Positions 258 to 21,588 of a stretch of 64,000 nucleotides of DNA are shown here, one piece after another. Source of the DNA: Hippea alviniae EP5-r (GTDB taxonomy: Bacteria > Campylobacterota_A > Desulfurellia > Desulfurellales > Hippeaceae); NCBI RefSeq assembly GCF_000420385.1, contig NZ_ATUV01000001.1:248001-312000 (forward strand). The letters are read 5' to 3'. The notes under the pieces were generated by a model, which was not told the origin of the DNA, ran no database searches, and saw only the letters and a program-made list of their open reading frames with translations. Numbering within the stretch: the first letter of the stretch is position 1; every line of letters begins with the position of its first letter. Both the position numbers and the translations under genes were made by a program.

Positions 258-516
258 TATGCATATTAGTCTGGATAGCTCTTATTTCTCCCTTATGGAG
301 AAAATGAGAGCAAAAAAGACAAGGAGTGCGTTTATTGAAGAACTTCTGGATCACAAAAAAGAGATAAACAGCATTTTAGATCATTTGTCAGCAGTAAAAA
401 ACAACCAGAAGCGCATATTTGCATTGCTGCTTCTGATATCGGAAAAGTGTGAAGTATCGGATGAAAAAATCAAAGCAGTTATGCTCGAAAATAAAGATAA
501 CAAGGAGGAGTTATGA
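244..516 (+). CDS. Small ribbon-helix-helix-like relaxosome accessory protein (TrwA-like position)
   Basis: This 90-residue protein begins with a short β-strand-like segment (KIDMHISLD) followed by two predicted helices containing TRSAFIEELL, as in ribbon-helix-helix DNA-binding proteins. The rest looks helical and charged. The start is taken at 244, behind AAGGAG at 230-235, rather than at the TTG at 226. Its stop overlaps the coupling-protein start by four bases (ATGA). The order small RHH protein, coupling protein, MobF relaxase matches trwA-trwB-trwC of R388-type plasmids, so it probably binds oriT and represses the operon. The fold and role are inferred from position and pattern, not from a clear family match. 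Confidence 0.55.
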   Translation: MSKIDMHISLDSSYFSLMEKMRAKKTRSAFIEELLDHKKEINSILDHLSAVKNNQKRIFALLLLISEKCEVSDEKIKAVMLENKDNKEEL

Positions 517-2357
517 GCAGATCCGTTTTAGGTATAGGTGAAGGATTTGATCTGTTTGTCAACAGGATTAGATACATTGCATACTTTCTTATATACAATA
601 TAGGCCTAACTATCATTGCCTTTTTAGTATCCTTTTTCTATTTTGCGCAGAAGGATTCCAACATAATATTTATTCTCAAATACAGCATAAAATACGGCTT
701 TTACAATCTAAAACTATGGTTCTTTGAAGGACTTGTTAAAAATCAAAAGCTACCTTTTGATTACGGCTTTGCTCAAAATATATACAGAAAATACTTCTCC
801 CTTATACTCCACACCCATGCCTTTTATTATGCTATTGGTATTTCTGTACTCATTTTCCTTATCACCTTCTTTTTAGTCTACAGATATACAAAGAAGTTAT
901 CAGATAAGCGCATAGTAAGAGGCACAAAGATTAAAAATCTGGGCAAAGTTAAAGAGCTCTCCAAGTTCATAAGACCGAAAGATGAAGTAAAGCACACTAT
1001 TGTGATAGGAACGACAGGCTCAGGCAAGACACAGTCCTTACTGAATCTAATGAAAGAAAAAATCACTGAAGGCAAAAATGTCATTTTTGATGCAAAAGGA
1101 GATTTCTTATCCAGGTTTTTTAGAAAGGGAGTAGACATTATTCTAAATCCCCTGGACATAAGGAGCCATAGATGGAACTTTTTGGAAGAAATTGAAGATA
1201 TAGCAGATCTTGAAACTCTCTCCCAATCTCTTATCCAGAAACCAAAGGGAAGCATAAACCATACATCGGATTATTTTATCAAGAATGCGCAACAGATACT
1301 GTTTATGCTCCTTCAACAGCTACTGGAAAAAGGCGTATTAGACAACAGCAAAGTTAGAGAAGCCATACTAAATGAGATATTCTACAAAACAGATTCATCT
1401 TTGCTTTCTGGTTTTAAAAAGGATCTGAATCTTGGCAGCAATGTATCGCTTGCAGATACATTATCCACACTCAGGGTACATCTCTCCTTTGCAAGGGCTA
1501 TAGGTTATGAGCCCGATGTTAATCCAAAGTTTCATATAAAAGAGTGGATAAGCTCTCATGAGAACAGAAATGTGTACATAACCTACGATTTTAGCAAATC
1601 GCCTATAACAGAAGGCTTCTACTCCGCATTCTTAAATATGCTTCTGCTTCGTTTATCATCTATGCCGGATATAAACAGCGCAAACGGCTCAAAGATAAGA
1701 ATCTGGATAGATGAACTTGCAAATCTTCCAACAATACCAAATCTTGGAGAAGCTCTATCTTATGTAAGGAGTAAAGGAGTAGCGTTTTATTTGTCCACCC
1801 AAAGCCTTGAAGGTCTTAAAAGAAGATATAAGACTTTTGAAATTGCAGATATACTTAACAACTGCAACACAATAATCTCCTTTGCTGCCAACGATTCATT
1901 CACGGCAGAAACCATTTCAAAACTGATAGGCCAAACCCAGATAGAGCTGCCCAGTAAGAATAATTTCTCAAGCCCTAAAATCTCTAAAATTGATGGTATA
2001 AACCTTCATAAGGAGAGAACAACAGAAGTGGCCGTTTTGCCTTCAGAGATTATGGCTTTAAAAGATCTTGAGTTTTATGCCAAATTCTCAAGAAGATGGT
2101 ATAAAGGTAAACTAAAATACATAAATATTCCAAAAAATGATATAGAGTTCTTCATAAAAAATACCTCATTCAACCTAAATGCAGACAGCCGTAACCATAA
2201 TAAAAAGAATGAGAACAACGGAGATCCGAAGCCACTTACAACTCATTCAGATGACAACAAAATATCAAAAGAGAAAGACAACCCAAAAGATGAAAACAAG
2301 GACTCAAAGAAACTAAACCAAAACCCGCTTGATATAGCAGATAAATTTATGGAGTAG
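513..2357 (+). CDS. Type IV coupling protein (TrwB/TraD/VirD4 family)
   Basis: This 614-residue membrane ATPase would link the relaxase-DNA complex to a secretion channel. Two hydrophobic segments lie near residues 20-45 and 98-122. A Walker A motif GTTGSGKT is at about 166-173 and a Walker B segment IWIDELANLP near 396-405. AYLSTQ-like downstream motifs (FYLSTQSLEGLKRR) are as in TraD/TraG proteins. The last 60 residues are a hydrophilic Lys/Asn/Asp-rich tail. It overlaps the upstream gene by ATGA and is followed after 3 bases by the relaxase, so the three genes form one operon. Family membership is clear; the secretion partner is not in the window. Confidence 0.88.
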   Translation: MSRSVLGIGEGFDLFVNRIRYIAYFLIYNIGLTIIAFLVSFFYFAQKDSNIIFILKYSIKYGFYNLKLWFFEGLVKNQKLPFDYGFAQNIYRKYFSLILHTHAFYYAIGISVLIFLITFFLVYRYTKKLSDKRIVRGTKIKNLGKVKELSKFIRPKDEVKHTIVIGTTGSGKTQSLLNLMKEKITEGKNVIFDAKGDFLSRFFRKGVDIILNPLDIRSHRWNFLEEIEDIADLETLSQSLIQKPKGSINHTSDYFIKNAQQILFMLLQQLLEKGVLDNSKVREAILNEIFYKTDSSLLSGFKKDLNLGSNVSLADTLSTLRVHLSFARAIGYEPDVNPKFHIKEWISSHENRNVYITYDFSKSPITEGFYSAFLNMLLLRLSSMPDINSANGSKIRIWIDELANLPTIPNLGEALSYVRSKGVAFYLSTQSLEGLKRRYKTFEIADILNNCNTIISFAANDSFTAETISKLIGQTQIELPSKNNFSSPKISKIDGINLHKERTTEVAVLPSEIMALKDLEFYAKFSRRWYKGKLKYINIPKNDIEFFIKNTSFNLNADSRNHNKKNENNGDPKPLTTHSDDNKISKEKDNPKDENKDSKKLNQNPLDIADKFME

Positions 2358-2360
2358 ACT

Positions 2361-5039
2361 ATGTTATCAAAGCCAATCTCAAGAAGCCCCTCTGGGGCTT
2401 CTGCCTATTATTATCAAACAGAAAACAAGACAAACAGCCTATGGGGAGGCAAAGCAGCAGAAGAGCTCGGATTAAGGGATAAAGTGAAACTTGAGCAGTT
2501 TCAAAGAGTCTTGGATGGTTTTCATCCCTATAGGGATGAGAAACTAAGACAGAATGCCAATAAGGAGAATGCTATAGCCGGATGGGATTTTACATTCTCA
2601 CTCTCCAAGAATGCATCCATTTTAGCTTTAGCAGACAGAAGAATAGAAAAGGCATTTCATAAAAGCATTGATGAAGCTTTGTCTATAGCCCAAGAGAGAT
2701 ACGCTCTAACAAGAACAGGCCATGCCGGTATAAACAAAGAGCACACAGGCAACCTTTTATATGCGCGTTTTACACACTACAACTCAAGAGCCAATGACCC
2801 ACAGATTCATGAGCATGTGTTTATTGTCAATACCACCTTAGGAATAGATGGCAAATGGAGAAGCCTTGATAACAGAGAGCTTTACTCACTCTACAAGCAT
2901 ATAGGTCAGATTCAGGAGCATATTTTAGCCCAAGAGCTAAAGAGTCTTGGCTATGAGCTTGAGATAGACAGAAAAAACGGTATGGTTGATATAAAGACAG
3001 CAAGACAAGATGTAAAGGAATTTTTCTCAAAACGCTCTCAGCAGATAAAAGAAGAGTATGAGAAAAACAAAGATAGGTTTGAATATGAAAGAGACGCAAA
3101 GCAGAAGGCAAGCTGGGATACAAGACAAGAGAAGGACCACAACTTCTCATACAAGGAAATGAAGAATAAGGTTAATCTGGAGCTAAAAGAGCATTTTGGA
3201 ATAAACCTGAAGCAGTTCAAAAAACAGGCAGTAGAATTAGCAAGGCAAAACAGCGTGACCCTGCAAGCAAAAACAGCAAAAGAACAATCAGAAGCCACTA
3301 TAGATAAATCTCTCGATACTGCATTGGAAGATTTAACCAAAGCTCAATCCGTTTTTACAAAAGAACAGATTGAAAATCTTATTCTAAAACAGACGCTTGG
3401 TGAAAACATCACTTTAAAACAGATAGACGAAGCTATAGAAAAAGAGATAAAAAACGGAAATATCTTAGCCCTTGATGATAAATATCTAACAACAAGGGCT
3501 ATACAGAGTATAGAAAAAGAAACCGTAAGCATAATAGAGCATAATGTTCAAACAACAGGAATATACGATAAGCAGCAAGCTAAGGAGTTAATAGAGCTCC
3601 AAGAAAGATATCAAAACTTTAAATATACAGATGGACAAAAGGAGTTTATGGAAAAAGCCCTAACTCAAAATAAAAGGTATCTTATCGTTCAGGGTAACGC
3701 AGGAAGTGGAAAAACAGCTTCAATTAAACTTATAAACAGGGCTTATACTCAGGAAGAATGCAAAGTTATTGGCGTTGCTCCAACCGGTAAGGCTGCAAAC
3801 CTACTAAAGGAATCAGGCATTGAGAATGTATTTACAATAGCAAAACTAAAGAACGAGATCCAAAACGGCAATATCAATCTCAACAACTCAAAAACCGTAC
3901 TGATTGTGGATGAATCCAGTATGATTTCAAGCTCTGATATGCACTTTTTGATTAAGCAAGAAACAGCTAAAACTATTCTTGTTGGCGATATAAAGCAGTT
4001 TAAACCCATAGAGCAGGGAAAAGTCTTTGAAGATATACAGAAACACATAAAACCTGAGAACTATGTAGATATGCAACAGACCGTTAGATTCAAGACTCAA
4101 GAACAAAAACAAACAGCTAATCTTATGAACCAGAAGAGATTTGCAGAAGCTATAGACTTGCTTGATAGAAACGGTAGTATAAAAGAGATAGAGGATAAAA
4201 ATGAAAAGATCGAGAAAATCAAGGAGTGCTATATTGAAAATATCAAAAACAACAGAGATGTCCTTTTAATAACAAATACAAATAAGGAAAGGGAAATACT
4301 CAATGAGACAATAAGGGAAAAGCTCAAAGAAGAAGGCTTAGTAGATAAAAAAGACTATAAGGTTTTAGCCTATTCACCCAAGAATTTAGATCCTGCCGAG
4401 AGGAACTTCATAGAAAGCTACCGAAAGACAGACAAACTTATCTTCACAAGCCAAAGCAGAACAGGCCTTGTTGGTGAAGCAAATATTATAGATGTCGATA
4501 AAGATAAAAATACTATAAGAATAGAGCATAATAACAGGATATACGAATTTACTCCGCAGGATTTAAAGGATGCAGCTTTATTTAAACAGAATTATAGAAA
4601 CTTCTCTGTTGGTGATACGATTATCTTTTTAAAGAACGATAAGGGCTTAAATATAGCCAATGGAGAGATAGGCAAAATAGAGAGCATTGAAAAGGACAGA
4701 ATAGGCATAATAAAGCAAAATAGAGAAAATGTAACCATAAACACCAATCAAAACTCAAAAGATGTCTATAACTACATCGACCACGCCTATGCAATAACGA
4801 CCTACAAAAGCCAGGGACAAACAACGAATGTAACAATATATTCTCACAGCTCTGAGACAATCTCAAATCAGGAGTCTTTCTATGTGGCAGCCACAAGGGC
4901 TAAAGAAGAGACTGTTATCTTTACAGACAACAAAGAAATTCTAAAAGAACAATCCCAGATGGAACAGGAGAAGTTGAGCACGATTGATTTTGGAAAGAAA
5001 AGAAGAGATAGAAGAAAAAGAAAAAATGCACCTATCTAA
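2361..5039 (+). CDS. MobF-type conjugative relaxase-helicase (TrwC/TraI family)
   Basis: This 892-residue protein has an N-terminal TrwC relaxase domain and a C-terminal RecD-like helicase. A tyrosine cluster (YYY, 16-18) holds the presumed nicking residue. A metal-binding HUH region includes HEHVFIVN near residues 150-157. The signature WGGKAAEELGL resembles TrwC. The helicase has Walker A GNAGSGKT at about 445-452, Walker B LIVDESS near 514-520 and a YKSQG motif near 814-818. It would nick oriT and unwind the transferred strand. The N-terminus is compact: the tyrosines sit in one triplet rather than in two separated pairs. It ends in a basic tail. Confidence 0.9.
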   Translation: MLSKPISRSPSGASAYYYQTENKTNSLWGGKAAEELGLRDKVKLEQFQRVLDGFHPYRDEKLRQNANKENAIAGWDFTFSLSKNASILALADRRIEKAFHKSIDEALSIAQERYALTRTGHAGINKEHTGNLLYARFTHYNSRANDPQIHEHVFIVNTTLGIDGKWRSLDNRELYSLYKHIGQIQEHILAQELKSLGYELEIDRKNGMVDIKTARQDVKEFFSKRSQQIKEEYEKNKDRFEYERDAKQKASWDTRQEKDHNFSYKEMKNKVNLELKEHFGINLKQFKKQAVELARQNSVTLQAKTAKEQSEATIDKSLDTALEDLTKAQSVFTKEQIENLILKQTLGENITLKQIDEAIEKEIKNGNILALDDKYLTTRAIQSIEKETVSIIEHNVQTTGIYDKQQAKELIELQERYQNFKYTDGQKEFMEKALTQNKRYLIVQGNAGSGKTASIKLINRAYTQEECKVIGVAPTGKAANLLKESGIENVFTIAKLKNEIQNGNINLNNSKTVLIVDESSMISSSDMHFLIKQETAKTILVGDIKQFKPIEQGKVFEDIQKHIKPENYVDMQQTVRFKTQEQKQTANLMNQKRFAEAIDLLDRNGSIKEIEDKNEKIEKIKECYIENIKNNRDVLLITNTNKEREILNETIREKLKEEGLVDKKDYKVLAYSPKNLDPAERNFIESYRKTDKLIFTSQSRTGLVGEANIIDVDKDKNTIRIEHNNRIYEFTPQDLKDAALFKQNYRNFSVGDTIIFLKNDKGLNIANGEIGKIESIEKDRIGIIKQNRENVTINTNQNSKDVYNYIDHAYAITTYKSQGQTTNVTIYSHSSETISNQESFYVAATRAKEETVIFTDNKEILKEQSQMEQEKLSTIDFGKKRRDRRKRKNAPI

Positions 5040-5304: not shown

Positions 5305-5619
5305 ATGAATGATGGAATGGTAGAAATATTTATTGAGCTATGGAGAGAAGCATGCAAGAACGGAATAGACTTTGTTCCCCGTAGTAAAAACAGGGAGTTT
5401 CTGAGTATGTATAAATTGACTAAAAACCAAGCAATTAAGGCTCTGTGTGGTTTGTCTGCAGAGAATTATCGTTCTGGTCCAAAGAAAGACAGAGATAGAA
5501 AAGGGGATGTTTGGGAATTTAAAATAAACATACATGATATAAGAGATATTTATGTGAAGGTTAAGCTTTACAGCATAAACGGTAAATATTATGCAAAATG
5601 CATAAGCTTTCACAAATAA
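5305..5619 (+). CDS. MqsR-like type II toxin
   Basis: This 104-residue basic protein resembles MqsR-family RNase toxins. Its pattern is LTKNQAIKALCGLSAENY, then GPKKDRDRKGDVWEF, then a β-rich end with YVKVKLY and CISFHK. Known MqsR acts as an mRNA interferase on the RelE-like fold. A strong ribosome binding site (aaggagg, 5292-5298) precedes the ATG. The antitoxin gene follows 14 bases after its stop with its own ribosome binding site. The toxin-first order is that of mqsRA. The family call rests on motif pattern and gene order and is fairly sure. Confidence 0.75.
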   Translation: MNDGMVEIFIELWREACKNGIDFVPRSKNREFLSMYKLTKNQAIKALCGLSAENYRSGPKKDRDRKGDVWEFKINIHDIRDIYVKVKLYSINGKYYAKCISFHK

Positions 5620-5633
5620 CATGGAGGTGCAAT

Positions 5634-6668
5634 ATGAAAAAGGCAATTTGCCCTGTATGCGAGAAAGAAGTAGAAGTTGAACCTATAAAGAAAACAATTA
5701 CTGTAAAAGTTAGAAAAGAAAACATAGAGATACCTGTCACCTTTTTCAAGTGCAAAGAGTGCGGATATGATGAAATAGAAGATAGGGAAAATCCGATTGA
5801 TGAGCTTGACCTTGCTTATAGAGAATATAGAAAGAGACATGGTATGCTTCAACCAGAAGAAATTACCCAATTAAGAAAACAGTATGGCTTAAGCCAAAGA
5901 GAATTGGCAAAAATACTGGGATTAAGTCCAGCAACCTTGAGCAGATACGAAACAGGTGGACTACAAGAGCCAGCCCATGATTATTTACTTCAAATGCTAA
6001 AAAAGCCTGAGAATATGCTTGAAATACTCAATAAAAATAAAGAACTTTTAAAAGAAAAAAAGATAATGGCTCTTAGAGAAATCCTTCTGAATAAAATTAA
6101 CAACAAGGAAAAAGAGAAAGAGATAGAAGAAAGACACAACATAAAGAGTGAAACATTTCGTGGAAACAGAAAATTCTCTGTAGAGAGATTTAAAGATATT
6201 GTCTATTACATAATAAACAAAATGGAGCAGATGAACTATGTAGTAAATAAAACCAAACTTAACAAACTTCTATTTTACGCTGATTTTTTATATTTTAGAA
6301 AATTTGGAGTATCTTTAACAGGTGCAGCCTATGCAAAATTACCTTATGGACCATGCCCTGATGATTTCCAACACCTATTAGACTTAATGGAAAAAGAAAA
6401 TATTATAGTAGTTAAAGAGTTCTACCATCCTATAGGAAATGAAGAGATTGCAGAGAGTAGACTTTATACACCTGCATCAAAAAGAGAGATATCATTAAGC
6501 CAACAGGAAAAAGAGTTTATAGATTCTGTAGTAAAAACAATAGGAAGCAAAAAAGCGTCTGAACTGTCAGACCTTTCTCATAAAGAAAAAGCATATAAAG
6601 AGACAGAAGACTACAAAAATATAGATTATAGATACGCTAAAGATATCATTATTACCAACAATAATTAA
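5634..6668 (+). CDS. Antitoxin: MqsA-like zinc ribbon, HTH and Panacea (DUF4065) domains
   Basis: This 344-residue protein has three parts. An N-terminal zinc ribbon has paired cysteines (CPVC at about 6-9 and CKEC near 40-43). A Cro/Xre-type HTH follows (LSQRELAKILGLSPATLSRYE, about 86-106). The C-terminal half is Panacea-like, with KLNKLLFYADFLYF and LPYGPCPDDF. The first two parts match MqsA; Panacea is a known widespread antitoxin domain. The start is placed at 5634 behind GGAGGTG, not at 5598, which lies inside the toxin gene. It should neutralise the upstream toxin and repress the operon through the palindrome at 5273-5286. The MqsA-Panacea fusion makes it much longer than classical MqsA. 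Confidence 0.8.
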   Translation: MKKAICPVCEKEVEVEPIKKTITVKVRKENIEIPVTFFKCKECGYDEIEDRENPIDELDLAYREYRKRHGMLQPEEITQLRKQYGLSQRELAKILGLSPATLSRYETGGLQEPAHDYLLQMLKKPENMLEILNKNKELLKEKKIMALREILLNKINNKEKEKEIEERHNIKSETFRGNRKFSVERFKDIVYYIINKMEQMNYVVNKTKLNKLLFYADFLYFRKFGVSLTGAAYAKLPYGPCPDDFQHLLDLMEKENIIVVKEFYHPIGNEEIAESRLYTPASKREISLSQQEKEFIDSVVKTIGSKKASELSDLSHKEKAYKETEDYKNIDYRYAKDIIITNNN

Positions 6669-12852: not shown

Positions 12853-12870
12853 AAAGTGTGGGAGATGTGT

Positions 12871-14826
12871 ATGAATGTAAAAATTGATTTAGAAAGATTC
12901 TTGGAATTGTATGAATTTTACAAAAGCAAATACAGGCAGAGATACCCCAAAGGTGATAATGAAACTAGAGAAAAATTAAAGGAGTTTTGGAAGCTATTTG
13001 GAGAATTTTCAGATGATGTTTGTCATGAATGTGAATCTGTCGGTAAAGGGCGCTGGCAAATTTCAGGCAGAATACCTAATTATATTTGGAACAGATATAA
13101 ACCATTTGAAAACAATACACATTTGGTTATTTATGTCACTATTTATAACAATGAAGAAGGTTTGATAATTGGTATAGGCTTAATAGACGATAAGTTAGAC
13201 GAATTTGAGAAAAAAAATAGTAAAAAAATCTACAATTTTTTAGAGAAAGAATTAAAAATTATACAAAAAACTGATGAATGCAAGAATTACAAATTAGGTT
13301 CCAATAAGCATTCATTTAAGGTTCCTATTGAAAGAATAGATGAATTAAATCTGGATTGCATCATAAAAAATTTAAAGGAAATTTATAAAAAAACAATAGA
13401 AACATTCTATAGTAACCGCGAAGAAAATCTTGTAGAAATTAATGATAATCAATACAATCAACACATAAATCCTTTAAATCAAATCCTATACGGTCCACCT
13501 GGGACAGGGAAGACATATAGCGTAATTGAAAAAAGCTTGCAGATTATTGCAATGAAAGATGAAAAATTGAGGGATTTTTTGAGTCAAAATCCAAGCAGGG
13601 AAGAGTTACAGAAAAAGTTTAAAGAATATAGAGACAATGGGCAAATTGAATTTATCACCTTTCATCAAAATTATTCTTATGAAGAGTTTGTGGAAGGATT
13701 AAAAGCTAGAACAGATGCAGAAGGAAACATTTTTTATGAAATAGAAAACGGAATATTTAAAGAAATTTGCAATAAGGCAAAGAAAAACTTGGATGTGTCT
13801 CAAAGTAAAAAGATGAAAATGTCTTTTGAAGATGTGTTTAAAAGAAAAATTCTTGATAAATTAGAAGAAAGCGAAAAGATAACAATTCCTTTGAAAAGAA
13901 AGAATATTTATATATATGAAGTTACAGATAGAAGCGTCAAATTTGAGAAGGAGAGTGGTGATAAAAGCCATACTCTGTCAATAAAAACTTTAAAAGAGAT
14001 TTATGATTCAGAAGATGTAAAATCAAGAATAACAGGAGGGTTAGAACCATATTATCGAGGATTATTTGATTATTTAAAAGAAGGCTCAGAAATAGAAATC
14101 AACGAAGAGTTAGAAAACTTCATCCTAATAATCGACGAGATAAACCGCGGAAATATATCAAAAATCTTTGGCGAGTTGATTACGCTTGTTGAAGAGAGCA
14201 AAAGAATTGGAAACGAAGAAGAAACAATCGTAACCTTGCCTTACAGCAAAGAGCCTTTTGGTGTGCCGAAGAATCTTTACATCATAGGAACGATGAATAC
14301 GGCAGATAGAAGTATTGCTTTGCTTGATACGGCTTTAAGAAGGAGATTTACATTTATCGAAATGATGCCAAAACCCGAACTTTTGAGAGATATAAAAATA
14401 GAAGGTGATATTAATTTAGAAAAGCTGCTTAAAACAATAAATGACAGGATTGAGTATCTTTATGATAGAGACCATACAATAGGACATGCATATTTTTTGA
14501 GTATTAAAAGTTTTGATGATTTAAAAAATATATTCAGAAATAAAATAATTCCACTTCTTGCAGAGTATTTTTATGATGATTGGAAGAAAATTAGACTTGT
14601 TTTGGGAGATAATAGAAAGGAAAATAAAGATTATCGGTTTGTTAAAATTAAAGAACTATCGGCTGAAAATCTTTTTGGAGAAGATATTGATTTTGAGAAT
14701 GAAGTTTATGAGATAAACGAAAGTGCCTTTGATAAACCTGAAAGTTATAGACAGATATATGAAATAAAAAAAGAAGAAGAAAAACAGGAAAACAATGAAG
14801 AATCAACAATTGAAAACGGTAATTGA
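12871..14826 (+). CDS. mcrB: McrB-type GTPase/AAA+ subunit of a McrBC restriction system
   Basis: The 651-residue product has an unrecognised N-terminal domain (about 1-190), presumably for target recognition. The AAA+ core follows: Walker A GPPGTGKT at about 208-215, Walker B LIIDEINRGN near 418-427, sensor region GTMNTADRSI near 472-481 and arginines in ALRRRF near 486-491. The NTADR and INRGN signatures are those of McrB, which hydrolyses GTP and drives DNA translocation for cleavage by McrC. The start at 12871 is preferred because GGAG lies seven bases before it. The gene overlaps mcrC by 32 bases. Known McrBC cuts modified DNA; the modification recognised here cannot be read from the sequence. 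Confidence 0.88.
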   Translation: MNVKIDLERFLELYEFYKSKYRQRYPKGDNETREKLKEFWKLFGEFSDDVCHECESVGKGRWQISGRIPNYIWNRYKPFENNTHLVIYVTIYNNEEGLIIGIGLIDDKLDEFEKKNSKKIYNFLEKELKIIQKTDECKNYKLGSNKHSFKVPIERIDELNLDCIIKNLKEIYKKTIETFYSNREENLVEINDNQYNQHINPLNQILYGPPGTGKTYSVIEKSLQIIAMKDEKLRDFLSQNPSREELQKKFKEYRDNGQIEFITFHQNYSYEEFVEGLKARTDAEGNIFYEIENGIFKEICNKAKKNLDVSQSKKMKMSFEDVFKRKILDKLEESEKITIPLKRKNIYIYEVTDRSVKFEKESGDKSHTLSIKTLKEIYDSEDVKSRITGGLEPYYRGLFDYLKEGSEIEINEELENFILIIDEINRGNISKIFGELITLVEESKRIGNEEETIVTLPYSKEPFGVPKNLYIIGTMNTADRSIALLDTALRRRFTFIEMMPKPELLRDIKIEGDINLEKLLKTINDRIEYLYDRDHTIGHAYFLSIKSFDDLKNIFRNKIIPLLAEYFYDDWKKIRLVLGDNRKENKDYRFVKIKELSAENLFGEDIDFENEVYEINESAFDKPESYRQIYEIKKEEEKQENNEESTIENGN

Positions 14827-15973
14827 ATACGAAGAGATTAAACCTTCTGAAATTGGCGATCCGTTTAAAGAGTTAGAAGAATTCGCCAAGCAAAATCCGA
14901 CCGTCTTGAGTTTTACAAGAAACGGCAACTTGAAGTCCCAAAACTATGTAGGAATTATTCAAACAAAATTGGGATTTGTTTTAGAAATTTTGCCCAAAAT
15001 TTCCGACGAAGAAGATAAAGATAAATCAAAAGCAGTGCTTTTGAGAATGTTAAAAACTTTAAGGGATAGCCCGTTTAGAAATTATCAAATGGCCAACTTA
15101 AAAATAGAAAAATTACCGATTTTTGAAATTTTTATTAAGATGTTTTTGGACGAGCTGGGCATTTTAATAAGAAAAGGCATAAAAAATGATTATGTCTTAC
15201 AAGAAGAGAATCTGCCTTATTTGAAAGGTAAGTTAAAGATATCAGAACACATTATTAAAAATTTAATTCACAAAGAGAAATTTTTTGTGGAATATAATGA
15301 ATATATGCAAAATAGGGTTGAAAATCAAATCATTAAAACCACACTTCTCTTCCTACAGAAAAAAACTAAAAGGTTTCAAAAACTGATAAGAAAGTATCTG
15401 TTTGTGTTTGATGATGTTGACGAAATATATGATGTAAAGTCTGCGTTTGCAAAAATAAGCTTAGATAGAACTATAAAATATTATGAAAATGTGTTAATCT
15501 TTTGCAAAATCTTTTTGTTAAATAGATCTTTTTCTCCATATAAGGGCGATAGTGTGGCTTTTGCTTTGCTTTTTGATATGAATAGATTATTTGAAGATTA
15601 TGTAGGTAGTTATTTCAAGAAGCATTATAAAAACGTAGTGCTCCAACACAGAGAATATCATCTTCTAAGACAGGGAGGCGAAAAATTCTTTAATCTCAGA
15701 CCTGATATATACATGGAAGACGAAAATATCATACTCGATACGAAATGGAAAATTATTAAGGAAGAGAAAGACATCTCTCAAGATGATTTATATCAGATGT
15801 TTACCTATGCCATGAGATACAACAGTCATAAAGTATATTTAATATATCCTAAAATACAAGATTTGAAAATAGACGATTTTGAATTTTGCGGAACAGATAA
15901 TAAAAAACTTTATATTAGGTTTTTTGATGTTGACGGTGATTTTGAGAGAGAAGATTTAATAAGGCTTAATTAA
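14795..15973 (+). CDS. mcrC: McrC-type nuclease subunit
   Basis: The 392-residue protein has the McrC layout. An N-terminal β-rich part (GNLKSQNYVGIIQTKLG, LEILPKI) binds McrB. A C-terminal PD-(D/E)xK nuclease has LRPDIYMED and ILDTKWK near residues 303-322. It lies downstream of and overlapping mcrB, so the two are probably translationally coupled. The catalytic residues appear intact, so the system may be active although the HerA gene before it is broken. Confidence 0.88.
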   Translation: MKNQQLKTVIEYEEIKPSEIGDPFKELEEFAKQNPTVLSFTRNGNLKSQNYVGIIQTKLGFVLEILPKISDEEDKDKSKAVLLRMLKTLRDSPFRNYQMANLKIEKLPIFEIFIKMFLDELGILIRKGIKNDYVLQEENLPYLKGKLKISEHIIKNLIHKEKFFVEYNEYMQNRVENQIIKTTLLFLQKKTKRFQKLIRKYLFVFDDVDEIYDVKSAFAKISLDRTIKYYENVLIFCKIFLLNRSFSPYKGDSVAFALLFDMNRLFEDYVGSYFKKHYKNVVLQHREYHLLRQGGEKFFNLRPDIYMEDENIILDTKWKIIKEEKDISQDDLYQMFTYAMRYNSHKVYLIYPKIQDLKIDDFEFCGTDNKKLYIRFFDVDGDFEREDLIRLN

Positions 15974-16277: not shown

Positions 16278-17159
16278 ATGAGCATCCCTTCAAAAATAGT
16301 ATCAGCGGATATAAATTTTAAAGATCCATCTTCAAAACAATATAAACCAATATTAGATGAAGTAATTAATTTAGTTGCAAAAGAAACTAATAAACCAAAA
16401 GAAGAAATTGAAAAATTATTTGATAAAATTTATACTAAAGCAAAAAGCAATCCTGGTATTGCATTTCCATTAAGAAGTTCTGTTTTTCAATTAATAGATT
16501 TATTACCACCTGATAAAATACCAATTGAAATTTCCTTAGATGAAATCGATAAAGTTTATAATTACATTAGAATTTACATACAAATGTTTAGAAGAATTAG
16601 AGACATATTTTCAGGTAAAATTATCAGACCTGTTGTAATATTTGTTCCTAATCCTTTATTAGATGAAAATTCATCCTTCAATTCAGTTACAACTGGTTCT
16701 GCATCACCAAATGGAGATTTAATCTTTAATGTGAATTTTATAAAAAAATTGGTTTATATTGCTGAATTAGAGTTAAAATATAAAATCATCAAGATAAAAT
16801 CGAAAATATTTGAATCTAATGGTGGGAAAATTCAAGATAAATATGTATATGTAGCATTTTTAATAATACATGAATTGTTCCATTTAGTACAATCAGATGT
16901 TGAATATTTAGATAAAAGAGCAATTCAATATATTTGTAAAAATAAAGAAAAATATAAAGCAACTAAAAATATTCCAAAAACAAACTGTGAAAATAATCCT
17001 CTTACTCTTCAAATTGCAAATCAAATTCAAAATATAGTTGCAGATTATTTTAATAATTATAATATCTGCAGATTAGGACTTCCAGCATTACCAATTGGTT
17101 TATTTTCAAATGAAATAAATTTAGAACATATGACTTATGAACAAGCATATGATGTATGA
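16278..17159 (+). CDS. Putative metallopeptidase-like domain protein (N-terminal half of a DUF2201-like gene)
   Basis: The 293-residue product contains HELFHLVQSDVEY near residues 199-211, a zincin-type HExxH motif. This resembles the putative metallopeptidase domain found N-terminal to vWA domains in DUF2201-type proteins. The reading frame ends at EQAYDV within a 7-bp tandem duplication. Removing one repeat unit joins it in frame to the next gene (EQAYDEVLKEM). The codons are visibly richer in A+T than those of neighbouring chromosomal genes. In related systems such proteins accompany a MoxR-like AAA+ ATPase; none is adjacent here. The peptidase activity is unproven. Confidence 0.65.
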   Translation: MSIPSKIVSADINFKDPSSKQYKPILDEVINLVAKETNKPKEEIEKLFDKIYTKAKSNPGIAFPLRSSVFQLIDLLPPDKIPIEISLDEIDKVYNYIRIYIQMFRRIRDIFSGKIIRPVVIFVPNPLLDENSSFNSVTTGSASPNGDLIFNVNFIKKLVYIAELELKYKIIKIKSKIFESNGGKIQDKYVYVAFLIIHELFHLVQSDVEYLDKRAIQYICKNKEKYKATKNIPKTNCENNPLTLQIANQIQNIVADYFNNYNICRLGLPALPIGLFSNEINLEHMTYEQAYDV

Positions 17160-18315
17160 TGAAGTGTTAAAAGAAATGGATAATATGACACAAGAACAAA
17201 TTGATCAAATGATGAATCAACAAGATAATCATATGGATTCAAATGAAAATGTAAGAAATCAACCACAAAATCAACAAGGAACCGAAAAAAAATCATCCGG
17301 AGAAAATCAAGGAGAAAATAATAACTCCTTATCTGCGCAAAATACACCGCAAGCAGATGTTTCAGGTAAATTAGACCAAAAAAGAGAAGAAATTCAAATA
17401 GATATTGATGAAAGTGCAAAAGATGCAATTACTAAAAAAATGTCAAAAGATGAAATTGAAAGAGCAAAAGAAGAAATGAAAAATCAAAAAAAATTAGATA
17501 GGGAAGCATTAAAAAGAATTGCAGATAAAATAAAAAAAGAAATGGAATCTTCTGAAGAAGGTGTTAATTTTGAAAATGTAAGACCAAAATATAATTGGAA
17601 AATTCTTTTGAAAAAAATGAAACCTTCTGAAAAGAAAGAAGAAGAAACCTATTCAAGAATTTCAAGGAAATCTGCCGCAAGATTATTGCAGACAAAACAA
17701 ACGGGAGTGGCATTATTAATAAGACCGGGTACTAAAGAAGAAGATGTTGGGAAAGGGAGTGTGCTATTTATTCTTGATAGAAGTGATTCAATGAGTAATG
17801 TTTTTGGAATTATCAATGCTGAGATAAAAAAATTACTTACCAAAGATATGCAAAAATATTTTGATGAATTTTATCTTATTAAATTTGATAATGAATTTAG
17901 TTTTTATCAAGTTGATTTTCAAGAAAATAAAATTTTTGAAATTCCACAAATAATGACTTTTATAAAGAAGATGAAATCTAAATGGAATCCTCAAGTATTT
18001 ACAAAAGCAAATAAAAAACCTTATCCATTAATACATTTCTTTGATGCAACAAATTGGGGTGGTGGAACTGATTTTTCAAAAGAAATGTATGATATAACAA
18101 CTTTATTTTTAAAAAATGATAGAAATAATGCTATTTTGATTACTGATGAAGATATTTTATGGAAAGAAAATAAAAAGAAAATAAATTCATTAATTGTAAG
18201 ATATGGTAGAAAACCATTTAAATTTAATATAATACTGAAAGATAGAAGAACATATATAACATTTATTAAAAATTTTAGAGGTTTCAGATATTTGACTTAT
18301 TTTTTGGAGAATTGA
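17137..18315 (+). CDS. vWA-like domain protein (C-terminal half of a DUF2201-like gene)
   Basis: This protein is up to 392 residues long. The first third is a charged, Gln/Asn/Lys-rich linker. The C-terminal part is a von Willebrand A-like domain with the metal-site motif ILDRSDSMSNVFG, in which DxSxS is complete near residues 212-216. GGGTDFSKEM and ILITDEDILW follow. ATGs at 17137, 17149 and 17152 are possible starts; none has a good ribosome binding site. This fits the idea that it was once the continuation of the upstream frame. If translated separately, it would depend on coupling or re-initiation across the overlap. Confidence 0.65.
   Translation: MNKHMMYDEVLKEMDNMTQEQIDQMMNQQDNHMDSNENVRNQPQNQQGTEKKSSGENQGENNNSLSAQNTPQADVSGKLDQKREEIQIDIDESAKDAITKKMSKDEIERAKEEMKNQKKLDREALKRIADKIKKEMESSEEGVNFENVRPKYNWKILLKKMKPSEKKEEETYSRISRKSAARLLQTKQTGVALLIRPGTKEEDVGKGSVLFILDRSDSMSNVFGIINAEIKKLLTKDMQKYFDEFYLIKFDNEFSFYQVDFQENKIFEIPQIMTFIKKMKSKWNPQVFTKANKKPYPLIHFFDATNWGGGTDFSKEMYDITTLFLKNDRNNAILITDEDILWKENKKKINSLIVRYGRKPFKFNIILKDRRTYITFIKNFRGFRYLTYFLEN
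17148..17161 (+). repeat. 7-bp tandem duplication that breaks a reading frame
   Basis: TATGATG occurs twice in direct succession (17148-17154 and 17155-17161). With two copies the metallopeptidase-like frame stops at 17159. With one copy the sequence reads GCA TAT GAT GAA GTG and continues in frame into the vWA domain. This is seen directly in the bases. Confidence 0.9.
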
Positions 18316-18812: not shown

Positions 18813-18814
18813 TT
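18754..18814. repeat. Cluster of four TGCACTAA-type 8-mers forming nested hairpins
   Basis: TGCACTAA (18754-18761), its complement (18773-18780), TGCACTGA (18794-18801) and TTAGTGCA again (18803-18810) alternate in orientation. The right pair extends to a perfect 10-bp stem (18790-18799 with 18805-18814) that overlaps the fic stop codon. Only a short T run follows on the minus strand, so it is a weak terminator candidate. It could also be a binding-site array or a REP-like repeat. Confidence 0.6.
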
Positions 18815-19901
18815 ATTGACTCTTAAGTATCTCAAAAAGTCTACTGTTAATAAAAATCTTTTCTTTGCCAACCTTCTCACTTTTAACTATGCCAATTTTT
18901 TCAAGTTCTTTTAAGTATCTGGCAGCTATATTTCTTGATGCTATCTTATTGTCAACAAGCATAGAGATTTTTGTATATACATTGGAATATAAAATCTCGA
19001 CAAGTTCTTTTGAATATATCTTGGGTATCTGAGATTTTATCTTTTCTGAAGTCTCGTTCATAGCTTCCACAATCTTTTTGCTTAAATTCAGCGTTCTAAA
19101 AGATGTCTCTTCTATAGCCTTCAGCATAAAGACAACCCACTCTTCCCATTCGTTTTTGTAGGTAACATTTCTCAACAATCTGTAATATTCGCTTTTATGT
19201 TCTGTTAAATACCCACTCAAGTATAAAAAGGGTTCGCTTAAAAGGTTTTTTAACACTAAATATAAAACATTTATAATCCTGCCTGTTCTGCCATTTGCAT
19301 CATAGAATGGCTGAATTGCCTCAAACTGATAATGTATTAATGCGAGTTTGGTTAAAGGGTCGAATCCATCTTCGTCAGAGTTTATAAACTCTTCCAAGTT
19401 CTTTAAAAGATTCAAAATAATCTCTTCTCTATCTGGTGGTGTATAGTACACTTCATTTGTTTTATCGTTGATAAGCTTTGTTCCAGGGAGTTTTCTAATG
19501 CCGGCGCTATTGCCTTCTATCTCTTTCTGAATTTCTATAATGATATTCGTGGTTAACAGCCAATGCTTTTTAATCAAGTTATACCCTTTGTAAATGGCTT
19601 TTCTGTAGTTGATTACTTCTTTAACTTCAGGTTTTGTGATATTTTTCCTCAAAATAAGGGATTTATAAAGTTCATCGTGAGTTGTTATTATATTTTCAAT
19701 CTCAGAGCTGTCTTTGGCTTCCTTTATCGTTATTGAGCTTAATATTATATCCTTGTTAGGCAAAAGCTCTGAATAACCTTTTAACTCAGCCAAAGCTTTA
19801 TGTGTTTTTATTAACTGTTTTAAAATTACATCAGTTTCTGAAAAATCCTTAGGTGGCAGGAAAGGTAAATTATTAAAAGGCTTATTGGGGTCAGGTTTCA
19901 T
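18813..19901 (-). CDS. Fic family protein with altered catalytic motif
   Basis: The 362-residue protein has an N-terminal inhibitory-helix motif S-x3-E-N (65-70) and a Fic core (about 90-250). A C-terminal winged-helix region lies near 290-360 (ASRNIAARYLKELEKIGIV). Fic enzymes transfer AMP or related groups using the His of HPFx2(A/G)NGRxxR. Here the segment is IQPFYDANGRTGR, with Gln197 at the position of the catalytic His, while N203, G204, R205 and R208 are kept. A single base (CAG versus CAT/CAC) separates the two. The protein may be inactive or have lost AMPylation but kept DNA-binding regulation. Confidence 0.8.
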   Translation of the reverse strand: MKPDPNKPFNNLPFLPPKDFSETDVILKQLIKTHKALAELKGYSELLPNKDIILSSITIKEAKDSSEIENIITTHDELYKSLILRKNITKPEVKEVINYRKAIYKGYNLIKKHWLLTTNIIIEIQKEIEGNSAGIRKLPGTKLINDKTNEVYYTPPDREEIILNLLKNLEEFINSDEDGFDPLTKLALIHYQFEAIQPFYDANGRTGRIINVLYLVLKNLLSEPFLYLSGYLTEHKSEYYRLLRNVTYKNEWEEWVVFMLKAIEETSFRTLNLSKKIVEAMNETSEKIKSQIPKIYSKELVEILYSNVYTKISMLVDNKIASRNIAARYLKELEKIGIVKSEKVGKEKIFINSRLFEILKSQ

Positions 19902-20037: not shown

Positions 20038-21225
20038 TTAGCTACTTTTATTTGATTTTATTTTGTCTTCTGTTTTGGAATTTAAATCTCTGCTTACATT
20101 TTCAAGGTCTTCTACGGCTTTCCTTTTTATATCCGGTATAAGGTGAGAGTAGCGCTCTGTCATAGCTAAGGTTTTGTGTCCCATAAGCTCTTTAATTGTA
20201 TAGATAGGTGTTCCTTTTATGGCAAGCCAGGAAGCAAAAGTGTGCCTAAGGGTGTGGAAAACAACTCTATCTTTTCTATCAACTACATTATCATTCAACC
20301 CTAAAGCATTGACTGCTCTAAAGAATGAGTGTGATATTTTGGTTATCTTTTCACCCTTGGAGCTTTTAAATACAAGGCCACTCTCTTCTTTTAAGTCTCT
20401 CTTTTTATCAAGCAGCATTTCTTTAACGCCATCTGTCATATATGCAACCCTGTCGGTTTTGTTTTTAGAGTTTTTTATGTATATTATCCCATTATCAAAA
20501 TCTATATCTTCCCACTTGAGATTGAATATCTCACCTGCTCTCATGCCAGTGTATAGGCTCAAATACGCCATTTCGTAGGTCTGTTTGCTATGTTTCTTTA
20601 GCTCTTCAAGCAAATTGCCTGCTTCTTCAGGTGATAAAAATCTAATTCTTTTATTGTCTTCTTTTGGTTTTTTAACCTTAGTTGCTGGGTTTATCCCTGA
20701 ATATATTCCCCAGTTTATTGCCATATTGAATGCCTGTCTGACAACAGCTAAAGCATACTCTATTGTTCTTGGAGCTTTACCTTCTTCTTTCATTTCTTTT
20801 TTTACTTTCTCAAGGTCAAAGGGAGATATATCCTTCAGAGTTTTTTCTCCTATAATTGGCTTAATCCATGCGTTGTATAACTGATACTCCCTTTGATAGC
20901 TTGAGCTGTTTTTGTTGTCTTTAGAGTAGGGCAGATACTTCTCACTCATAAACTCATCAAATGTAATTTTTTGTTTTTTCTTCTTTTGGATAGGTATTAC
21001 TTCTTCTCCAAGTCTTATATTTCTTAGCCTTTCGTTTCTTATCTCAAAGGCATATTTGGCAGTTATACCTTCGCTTTCCCATCCTATTTTCTCCCTTATG
21101 CGCTTACCAGAAGGATCAACATATCTGATGTAGTAACACCTATCTGGTTTTCCGTTAAATCTTCTCTCACTGCTTTCGTAATATGTCACTCCAGGATACT
21201 TCTTCATGCTAAAAAATTTAGCCAT
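20038..21225 (-). CDS. Tyrosine integrase of the mobile element
   Basis: The 395-residue protein has an N-terminal arm-binding region, a SAM-like core-binding domain (about 85-175) and a tyrosine recombinase catalytic domain. The catalytic set is complete: R229, H324-x2-R327, H350 and Y359, in GMRAGEIF, HTLRHTF, GHK and ERYSH. GGAGG precedes the start. The gene sits 190 bases from the tRNA-Phe 3' fragment and reads away from it, so it almost certainly catalyses integration and, with a helper, excision at that site. Confidence 0.93.
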   Translation of the reverse strand: MAKFFSMKKYPGVTYYESSERRFNGKPDRCYYIRYVDPSGKRIREKIGWESEGITAKYAFEIRNERLRNIRLGEEVIPIQKKKKQKITFDEFMSEKYLPYSKDNKNSSSYQREYQLYNAWIKPIIGEKTLKDISPFDLEKVKKEMKEEGKAPRTIEYALAVVRQAFNMAINWGIYSGINPATKVKKPKEDNKRIRFLSPEEAGNLLEELKKHSKQTYEMAYLSLYTGMRAGEIFNLKWEDIDFDNGIIYIKNSKNKTDRVAYMTDGVKEMLLDKKRDLKEESGLVFKSSKGEKITKISHSFFRAVNALGLNDNVVDRKDRVVFHTLRHTFASWLAIKGTPIYTIKELMGHKTLAMTERYSHLIPDIKRKAVEDLENVSRDLNSKTEDKIKSNKSS

Positions 21226-21289: not shown

Positions 21290-21414
21290 TAAATGTGGAA
21301 AAATTAGAGATTTTAAGGGAAATCCAAGGAACATTGAAATCTTCATAATTACTTATATAACAAGGAAAAATGAAAGTCAAGGAAAAGTGGGGAAGAGAGC
21401 AGAAATAGTGCGGA

Positions 21415-21464
21415 AGGGACTGAAAATCCCTGTGTCGGCGGTTCGATTCCGTCTCTCGGCACCA
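21415..21464 (+). other. attR: 3' half of a tRNA-Phe gene
   Basis: The sequence runs from the anticodon arm (stem AGGGA/TCCCT, loop CTGAAAA, anticodon GAA) through variable region, T arm (GGCGG TTCGATT CCGTC) and acceptor strand TCTCGGC to ACCA. The expected 5' half (a complement GCCGAGA and a D arm) is missing upstream, so this is not a working tRNA. It is the duplicated end left by integration into tRNA-Phe. Confidence 0.85.
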
Positions 21465-21588
21465 TTTTTCTTTTTGTGGGATACAAGGATAGAGTTTTGT
21501 AATTAGCTTTATTTTTTATTTTCAAGGATAGATAAAAAGGGATTTTGCTCTTTCTTTAGGCATTCGTTGAAAATTTACTGCTTGGATA

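What the first reader, a model, noticed from the sequence alone, without database searches (positions are those of the whole stretch)
19299..19347. Fic protein with Gln in place of the catalytic His
The motif reads QPFYDANGRTGR where Fic enzymes have HPF-x2-(A/G)NGR-x2-R. The ATP-site residues and the inhibitory S-x3-E-N helix remain. The loss should abolish AMPylation by the usual mechanism, leaving either a dead gene, a regulator acting through its winged helix, or a different chemistry.
Basis: partly seen in the sequence, partly recalled or inferred. Interest (0 to 1): 0.6.

Follow-up and report, generated by a model that had tools for sequence, protein, structure and literature searches.

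The report
SoFic defence protein lacking catalytic histidine
A phage-defence protein carried on a mobile DNA island has lost the amino acid it should need to work, a rare and repeated natural change that most likely marks a silenced toxin rather than a new enzyme.

Summary
The protein at window 18813-19901 (minus strand, 362 aa) is a class II Fic protein of the SoFic family and reads Q197-PFYDANGRTGR where the family has HPFxDGNGRTGR. The motif lies at 19278-19313, about 20 bases from the coordinates given. Gln is not a fixed subfamily. In three pattern surveys, 264 of 267 motif stretches carry His, and the three Gln ones are genomes already known to carry it. Gln occurs as scattered singletons in four other lineages. 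Of those four, two have lost the C-terminal domain, one is frameshifted there, and one sits on a very long branch with excess damage at conserved sites. The window copy is otherwise well conserved; its one non-conservative break at sites invariant in its relatives, besides Q197, is G202A, inside the same motif. The gene is cargo of a roughly 29-kb tRNA-Phe integrative element. SoFic is a published abortive-infection toxin whose His-to-Ala mutant is non-toxic. Best reading: a recently silenced (dead or nearly dead) toxin allele. A retained non-catalytic role, or weak or altered chemistry, is not excluded. A His-to-Gln Doc clade (D2) has been in print since 2015, so the substitution itself is not new.

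The parts
18813..19901 (-). SoFic-type class II Fic protein, 362 aa (Fic_N, Fic, SoFic-like_C domains); GGAG ribosome-binding-site-like stretch 10 nt before ATG
   Evidence: ORF; Pfam; NCBIfam SoFic 408 bits, under its 550 cut-off; PADLOC SoFic 353.7 bits; upstream sequence
19278..19313 (-). Fic signature motif Q197-P-F-Y-D-A202-N-G-R-T-G-R208, with His replaced by Gln and the first Gly by Ala
   Evidence: sequence; alignments
19311..19313 (-). codon CAG for Gln197 at the catalytic His position, one base from a His codon
   Evidence: sequence; survey of the codon in other genomes
19692..19709 (-). inhibitory helix motif S-x3-E-N (residues S65 to N70)
   Evidence: sequence; conserved in relatives
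18837..19061 (-). SoFic-like C-terminal winged-helix-like domain (residues 281-355)
   Evidence: Pfam PF21248, 1.3e-28
20038..21225 (-). tyrosine integrase directly upstream of fic on the same strand
   Evidence: Pfam Phage_integrase 1.4e-33
21414..21465 (+). 3' remnant of tRNA-Phe = probable right attachment site of the integrative element; the intact tRNA-Phe lies at G000:C1:240651-240726, left of the window
   Evidence: search against own genome and direct comparison; ARAGORN finds the intact tRNA-Phe on L081 and none at the right end
12856..15973 (+). McrB-like and McrC-like genes on the same element
   Evidence: Pfam and NCBIfam; both below the NCBIfam equivalog cut-offs
513..5039 (+). 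TrwB-like coupling protein and TrwC-like relaxase of the element
   Evidence: Pfam

Best explanation
It is a naturally silenced allele of a SoFic-type abortive-infection toxin, carried as cargo beside the integrase of a mobilisable tRNA-Phe element. In an active SoFic the motif His takes the proton from a target hydroxyl so that AMP can be transferred from ATP, which harms the host cell during phage infection. Here Gln197 cannot act as that base in the usual way, so the protein should fold, bind nucleotide and stay autoinhibited but transfer little or no AMP. Because unregulated SoFic is toxic, cells that knock out its chemistry are repeatedly favoured, and His-to-Gln is one base away. Shown here: the substitution, its rarity and scattered occurrence, the otherwise intact protein, the element. 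Inferred: loss of activity, selection for loss, recency.
For: Full SoFic architecture, predicted fold nearest SoFic 3zcn/3zec/3eqx, best sequence matches to Sofic/SoFic structures. His is nearly universal: 139 of 140 motif stretches in 386 genomes, the exception being this gene; no codon beginning A, G or T at this place in the same 386 genomes. Gln carriers are isolated: 1 of 25 genomes of its phylum, and 1 of 119, 1 of 296, 1 of 151 and 1 of 149 genomes around the other four carriers, in each case only the carrier itself. The two full-length Gln genes are apart in a tree of 21. Other Gln copies look decayed: C-terminal domain missing in L021 and L022 and frameshifted in L023; by one same length criterion 2 of 5 Gln against 0 of 50 His genes lack it; L020 breaks 6 of 53 invariant sites and has an end branch of 2.15 against a median of 0.59. 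Literature: EcSofic H194A is non-toxic, the C-terminal domain is needed for toxicity, and wild-type genes are hard to clone; Fic3 H147A is non-toxic.
Against: The window copy shows no decay outside the motif: 2 of 49 invariant sites broken (L53I, G202A), within the 0-3 range of the 19 His relatives, with an intact frame. A dead gene should show more damage unless it died recently, and recency is not measured. His-to-Gln itself has not been tested in the SoFic papers I read. IbpA His-to-Ala keeps some activity. The comparison of decay rests on five Gln genes, four of them from metagenome assemblies, found with a pattern that included HYQFEAIQ.
Confidence: 0.6

Rival explanations
1. A kept pseudo-enzyme: catalysis is gone but the protein is maintained as an autoinhibited nucleotide-binding dimer with a winged helix. 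It would act as a transcriptional autoregulator, as a decoy for phage anti-Fic factors, or as a partner that damps an active Fic protein.
For: Only motif residues and one conservative site are changed while 47 of 49 invariant sites hold. Flap, inhibitory helix and C-terminal domain are kept. Fic-Fic neutralisation in trans is published for Campylobacter fetus Fic1/Fic2. The same genome carries a His-type Fic protein on contig C2.
Against: No related gene with Gln is conserved in any clade. The own-genome His-type Fic is only about 28% identical over the alignment, so a mixed dimer is unlikely. No DNA-binding or partner evidence exists.
Confidence: 0.2
2. A still active enzyme with weaker or different chemistry: Gln197 orients the target or water, possibly with A202 reshaping the phosphate nest, giving slow AMPylation, deAMPylation, or another transfer.
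For: A Doc clade (D2, 45 sequences) has Gln fixed, and its authors argue it may not be dead. D201, N203, R205 and R208 are all retained. The two motif changes occur together, which might be an adapted pair.
Against: Gln has no suitable pKa for a general base (established chemistry, recalled). EcSofic H194A is non-toxic. Gln is not conserved in any SoFic clade found here. A202 also occurs in one His-type gene (G927), so it is not tied to Gln.
Confidence: 0.13
3. A base-calling error or a mutation fixed during laboratory culture of the sequenced strain; the natural gene has His.
For: Single-base difference. Toxic SoFic genes are hard to clone and the SoFic structure is of a G109C form.
Against: The assembly is good (4 contigs, 99.61% complete). 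A second rare change, G202A, needs its own base change. Four other genomes carry Gln at the same place.
Confidence: 0.07

Closest known systems
SoFic / EcSofic (class II Fic protein, single-gene anti-phage defence; PDB 3eqx, 3zcn, 3zec; 9vjc is the best sequence match)
   Same: Same three domains, S-x3-E-N inhibitory motif, retained ATP-contact residues, 41-43% identity in the structural alignments to SoFic; found on mobile DNA.
   Different: Catalytic His replaced by Gln, and first motif Gly replaced by Ala. No neighbouring small gene could be matched to the AS1 antitoxin.
Doc clade D2, motif Qx[F/Y]x[D/E][G/V]NKR (PMC4454073, 2015)
   Same: Gln in place of the catalytic His, in print since 2015 (section read).
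   Different: D2 are usually single-domain Doc-like proteins with NKR and form a clade of 45. The window protein is three-domain, NGR, and a singleton.
Campylobacter fetus Fic2 and Bartonella Bep variants (degenerate or non-canonical Fic proteins)
   Same: Fic folds without full AMPylation competence that still have biological effects (passages read).
   Different: Different motif positions are changed in Fic2 (the second Gly and the last Arg), and these belong to other subfamilies.

Membership tests
SoFic (class II Fic, Fic_N + Fic + SoFic-like_C) | three-domain architecture | tested here: met
   all three Pfam models over cut-off
SoFic (class II Fic, Fic_N + Fic + SoFic-like_C) | N-terminal inhibitory motif (S/T)xxxE(G/N) | tested here: met
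   S65-SEI-E69-N70, conserved in relatives
SoFic (class II Fic, Fic_N + Fic + SoFic-like_C) | NCBIfam equivalog cut-off of 550 bits | tested here: not met
   408 bits; PADLOC SoFic model 353.7 bits, E 3.2e-106
SoFic (class II Fic, Fic_N + Fic + SoFic-like_C) | canonical motif HxFx(D/E)GNGRxxR with catalytic His | tested here: not met
   QPFYDANGRTGR. It is a homologue of SoFic by descent; membership as an active AMP-transferase is not claimed.
SoFic (class II Fic, Fic_N + Fic + SoFic-like_C) | AMPylation, toxicity, phage protection | not testable with these tools
   needs bench work
Doc clade D2 (Gln-type) | Doc-like single domain with NKR motif | tested here: not met
   NGR motif and three domains
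integrative mobilisable element at tRNA-Phe | tyrosine integrase next to a tRNA-derived direct repeat | tested here: met
   integrase; intact tRNA-Phe and 3' remnant about 28.7 kb apart
integrative mobilisable element at tRNA-Phe | empty site in a close relative | not tested
   same-genus genomes show only short partial matches to the 19-kb stretch, but the junction was not compared

The most novel reading that the evidence does not exclude
A SoFic pseudo-enzyme kept by selection after losing its catalytic base: an autoinhibited, nucleotide-binding dimer with a winged helix, on a mobile element, that senses or damps Fic-based defence instead of executing it.
Probability: 0.15. Interest if true: 0.55.

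Novelty: new variant of a known kind. Interest (0 to 1): 0.3.

Why it matters
SoFic is among the commonest defence genes in environmental metagenome assemblies (passages), and annotation pipelines would count this copy as an active system. If the reading is right, it is a natural example of a one-base silencing of a costly abortive-infection toxin, seen at least in five unrelated genomes. A check of the motif residue would tell live systems from dead ones. If the rival reading is right, it would be a rare intact Fic pseudo-enzyme.

Tried and rejected
Fixed Gln subfamily: rejected; no second Gln carrier in 25 phylum genomes, 386 wider genomes, or around the other four carriers. Relatives in viral contigs by peptide search: none confirmed. 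His substitutions other than Gln: codons starting A, G or T gave 0 of 386 genomes; codons starting CC, CG or CT were not searched. General decay of the window gene: not seen. A neighbouring AS1-like antitoxin: small ORFs listed, none could be matched because no AS1 sequence was at hand. Active-site geometry from the AlphaFold2 model: not used, since residues 65-75 and 132-155 have pLDDT under 50. Literature: (five terms) found nothing; some searches gave the papers cited; in these searches and the passages read I saw no report of Gln in a SoFic-type protein, and most subscription papers are not held.

Full report
Observation. The minus-strand ORF 18813-19901 encodes 362 aa with the motif EAIQPFYDANGRTGR. 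The protein has Fic_N, Fic and SoFic-like_C domains, scores on the PADLOC SoFic model and on the NCBIfam SoFic model below its cut-off. Its best solved relatives are Sofic/SoFic entries. A model from a three-sequence alignment has mean pLDDT 75.3 and finds SoFic entries first; its active-site parts are of low confidence and were not interpreted.

How rare is it? A degenerate DNA pattern that admits His or Gln at the catalytic codon was run on 386 genomes (the 25 of the phylum plus genomes spread over the domain): 140 stretches in 105 genomes, of which 139 are His and one is this gene (rows counted by hand and checked against the per-genome sums). Codons beginning A, G or T at that place gave none in the same 386 genomes. 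The same His-or-Gln pattern gave 73 His and 1 Gln in 151 genomes around the Armatimonadetes carrier, and 52 His and 1 Gln in 149 around the Acidobacteria carrier; each Gln was the carrier itself. Over these three surveys 264 of 267 are His and the other three were known in advance. A Gln-only pattern gave only the carrier in 25 genomes of the window's phylum, in 119 of the order of the Microbacteriaceae carrier and in 296 of the phylum of the Flavobacteriales carrier; these three have no His denominator. The motif pattern is strict and also catches Fic proteins other than SoFic.

Other carriers. A scan of genome contigs with six peptide patterns, one of them HYQFEAIQ, returned eight loci. Four have Gln: L020 Flavobacteriales, L021 Microbacteriaceae, L022 Armatimonadetes and L023 Acidobacteria, all metagenome assemblies; one (L019) has His; three show no full motif. 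The scan was biased to Gln and reported exactly 80 matching stretches, perhaps a limit, so it gives no frequency. One search found the Gln codon again in the four genomes.

Are the Gln genes decaying? L021 ends 58 residues after the motif, with no C-terminal domain found downstream; L022 stops at 59 residues; L023 changes frame in the C-terminal domain. By the same length test, 0 of 50 His genes with enough flanking DNA are short, against 2 of 5 Gln genes (simple combinatorics gives about 0.007, with small and unequally sampled sets). The frameshift in L023 was seen by hand, and frameshifts were not sought in the His genes. L020 is full length but breaks 6 of 53 sites invariant in the other 20 sequences and has an end branch of 2.15 against a median of 0.59.

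The window gene. In the same 21-sequence set it breaks 2 of 49 invariant sites, L53I and G202A (the His column is not invariant there, since L020 shares the Gln), within the 0-3 of the 19 His relatives. At the 90% level it breaks 6 of 94, H197Q included, and His relatives break 2-8. So the non-conservative damage is confined to the active-site motif. Its nearest relatives are His-type at 55% (L057), 53% (an Ilyobacter plasmid, L067) and 51% (Fusibacter, L019). In the tree the two full-length Gln genes are apart (two changes; one origin in 0% of 200 bootstrap trees), though starred branches alone do not exclude one origin, and L020 is a long branch of unsure place. A202 occurs in one His-type stretch, G927, so it is tolerated.

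Surroundings. The gene follows a tyrosine integrase on the same strand. Window 21414-21465 repeats the 3' part of an intact tRNA-Phe at G000:C1:240651-240726. The stretch between, about 28.8 kb, holds a primase-like gene, AbiEii and PIN genes, TrwB and TrwC homologues, and McrB- and McrC-like genes. Window 1-21466 has GC 0.329 against 0.371 for the rest of the window. A broken SoFic remnant with five stops lies in a genome of the same family (G009).

Mechanism. Read from papers: the His deprotonates the target hydroxyl (passages). EcSofic is toxic, H194A is not, deleting the C-terminal domain abolishes toxicity, and the wild type is hard to clone (parts 1-2 of 4 read). C. fetus Fic3 H147A is non-toxic (passages). 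I infer that Q197 removes most or all AMP transfer and that loss is favoured when the toxin is a burden. The counter-case is the 2015 Doc D2 clade with Gln, whose authors cite residual activity of other His mutants (section read), and the clean conservation of this copy.

Verdict. A rare, recurrent, scattered active-site loss in a known defence family. Probably a silenced toxin (0.6); a kept pseudo-enzyme (0.2), altered chemistry (0.13) and an artefact (0.07) remain.

Noticed in passing
window 16278-18315 (+): Two overlapping genes next to the McrB/McrC-like pair, one with a HELFH metallopeptidase-like stretch and one with a DxSxS vWA-like stretch (motifs recognised by eye, recalled). Neither matches Pfam, NCBIfam or PADLOC.
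   Followed up: partly
G000:C1:240651-269466 (window 1-21465 is its right part): Integrative element of about 28.8 kb between an intact tRNA-Phe and a 3' tRNA-Phe remnant, with relaxase, coupling protein and several defence-like genes.
   Followed up: partly
G000:C2:415950-416927 and C2:63868-64035: Two further Fic matches in the same genome: a full His-type one (HPFLDGNGRVGR) and a 106-aa open frame matching only part of the Fic model.
   Followed up: no
L016/L024 (genome G009, Desulfurellales): SoFic remnant with five in-frame stops in a genome of the same family: independent loss of a SoFic gene.
   Followed up: no
L087 256-1338; L091; L067: SoFic genes on plasmids lie between a DNA methyltransferase and an hsdS-like gene (Azotobacter), right after a tyrosine integrase (Pantoea, same order as in the window), or beside a second, oppositely oriented Fic gene (Ilyobacter).
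   Followed up: no
window 5598-6668 (+): Protein combining MqsA-like and SocA/Panacea antitoxin domains; a possible orphan antitoxin on the element.
   Followed up: no
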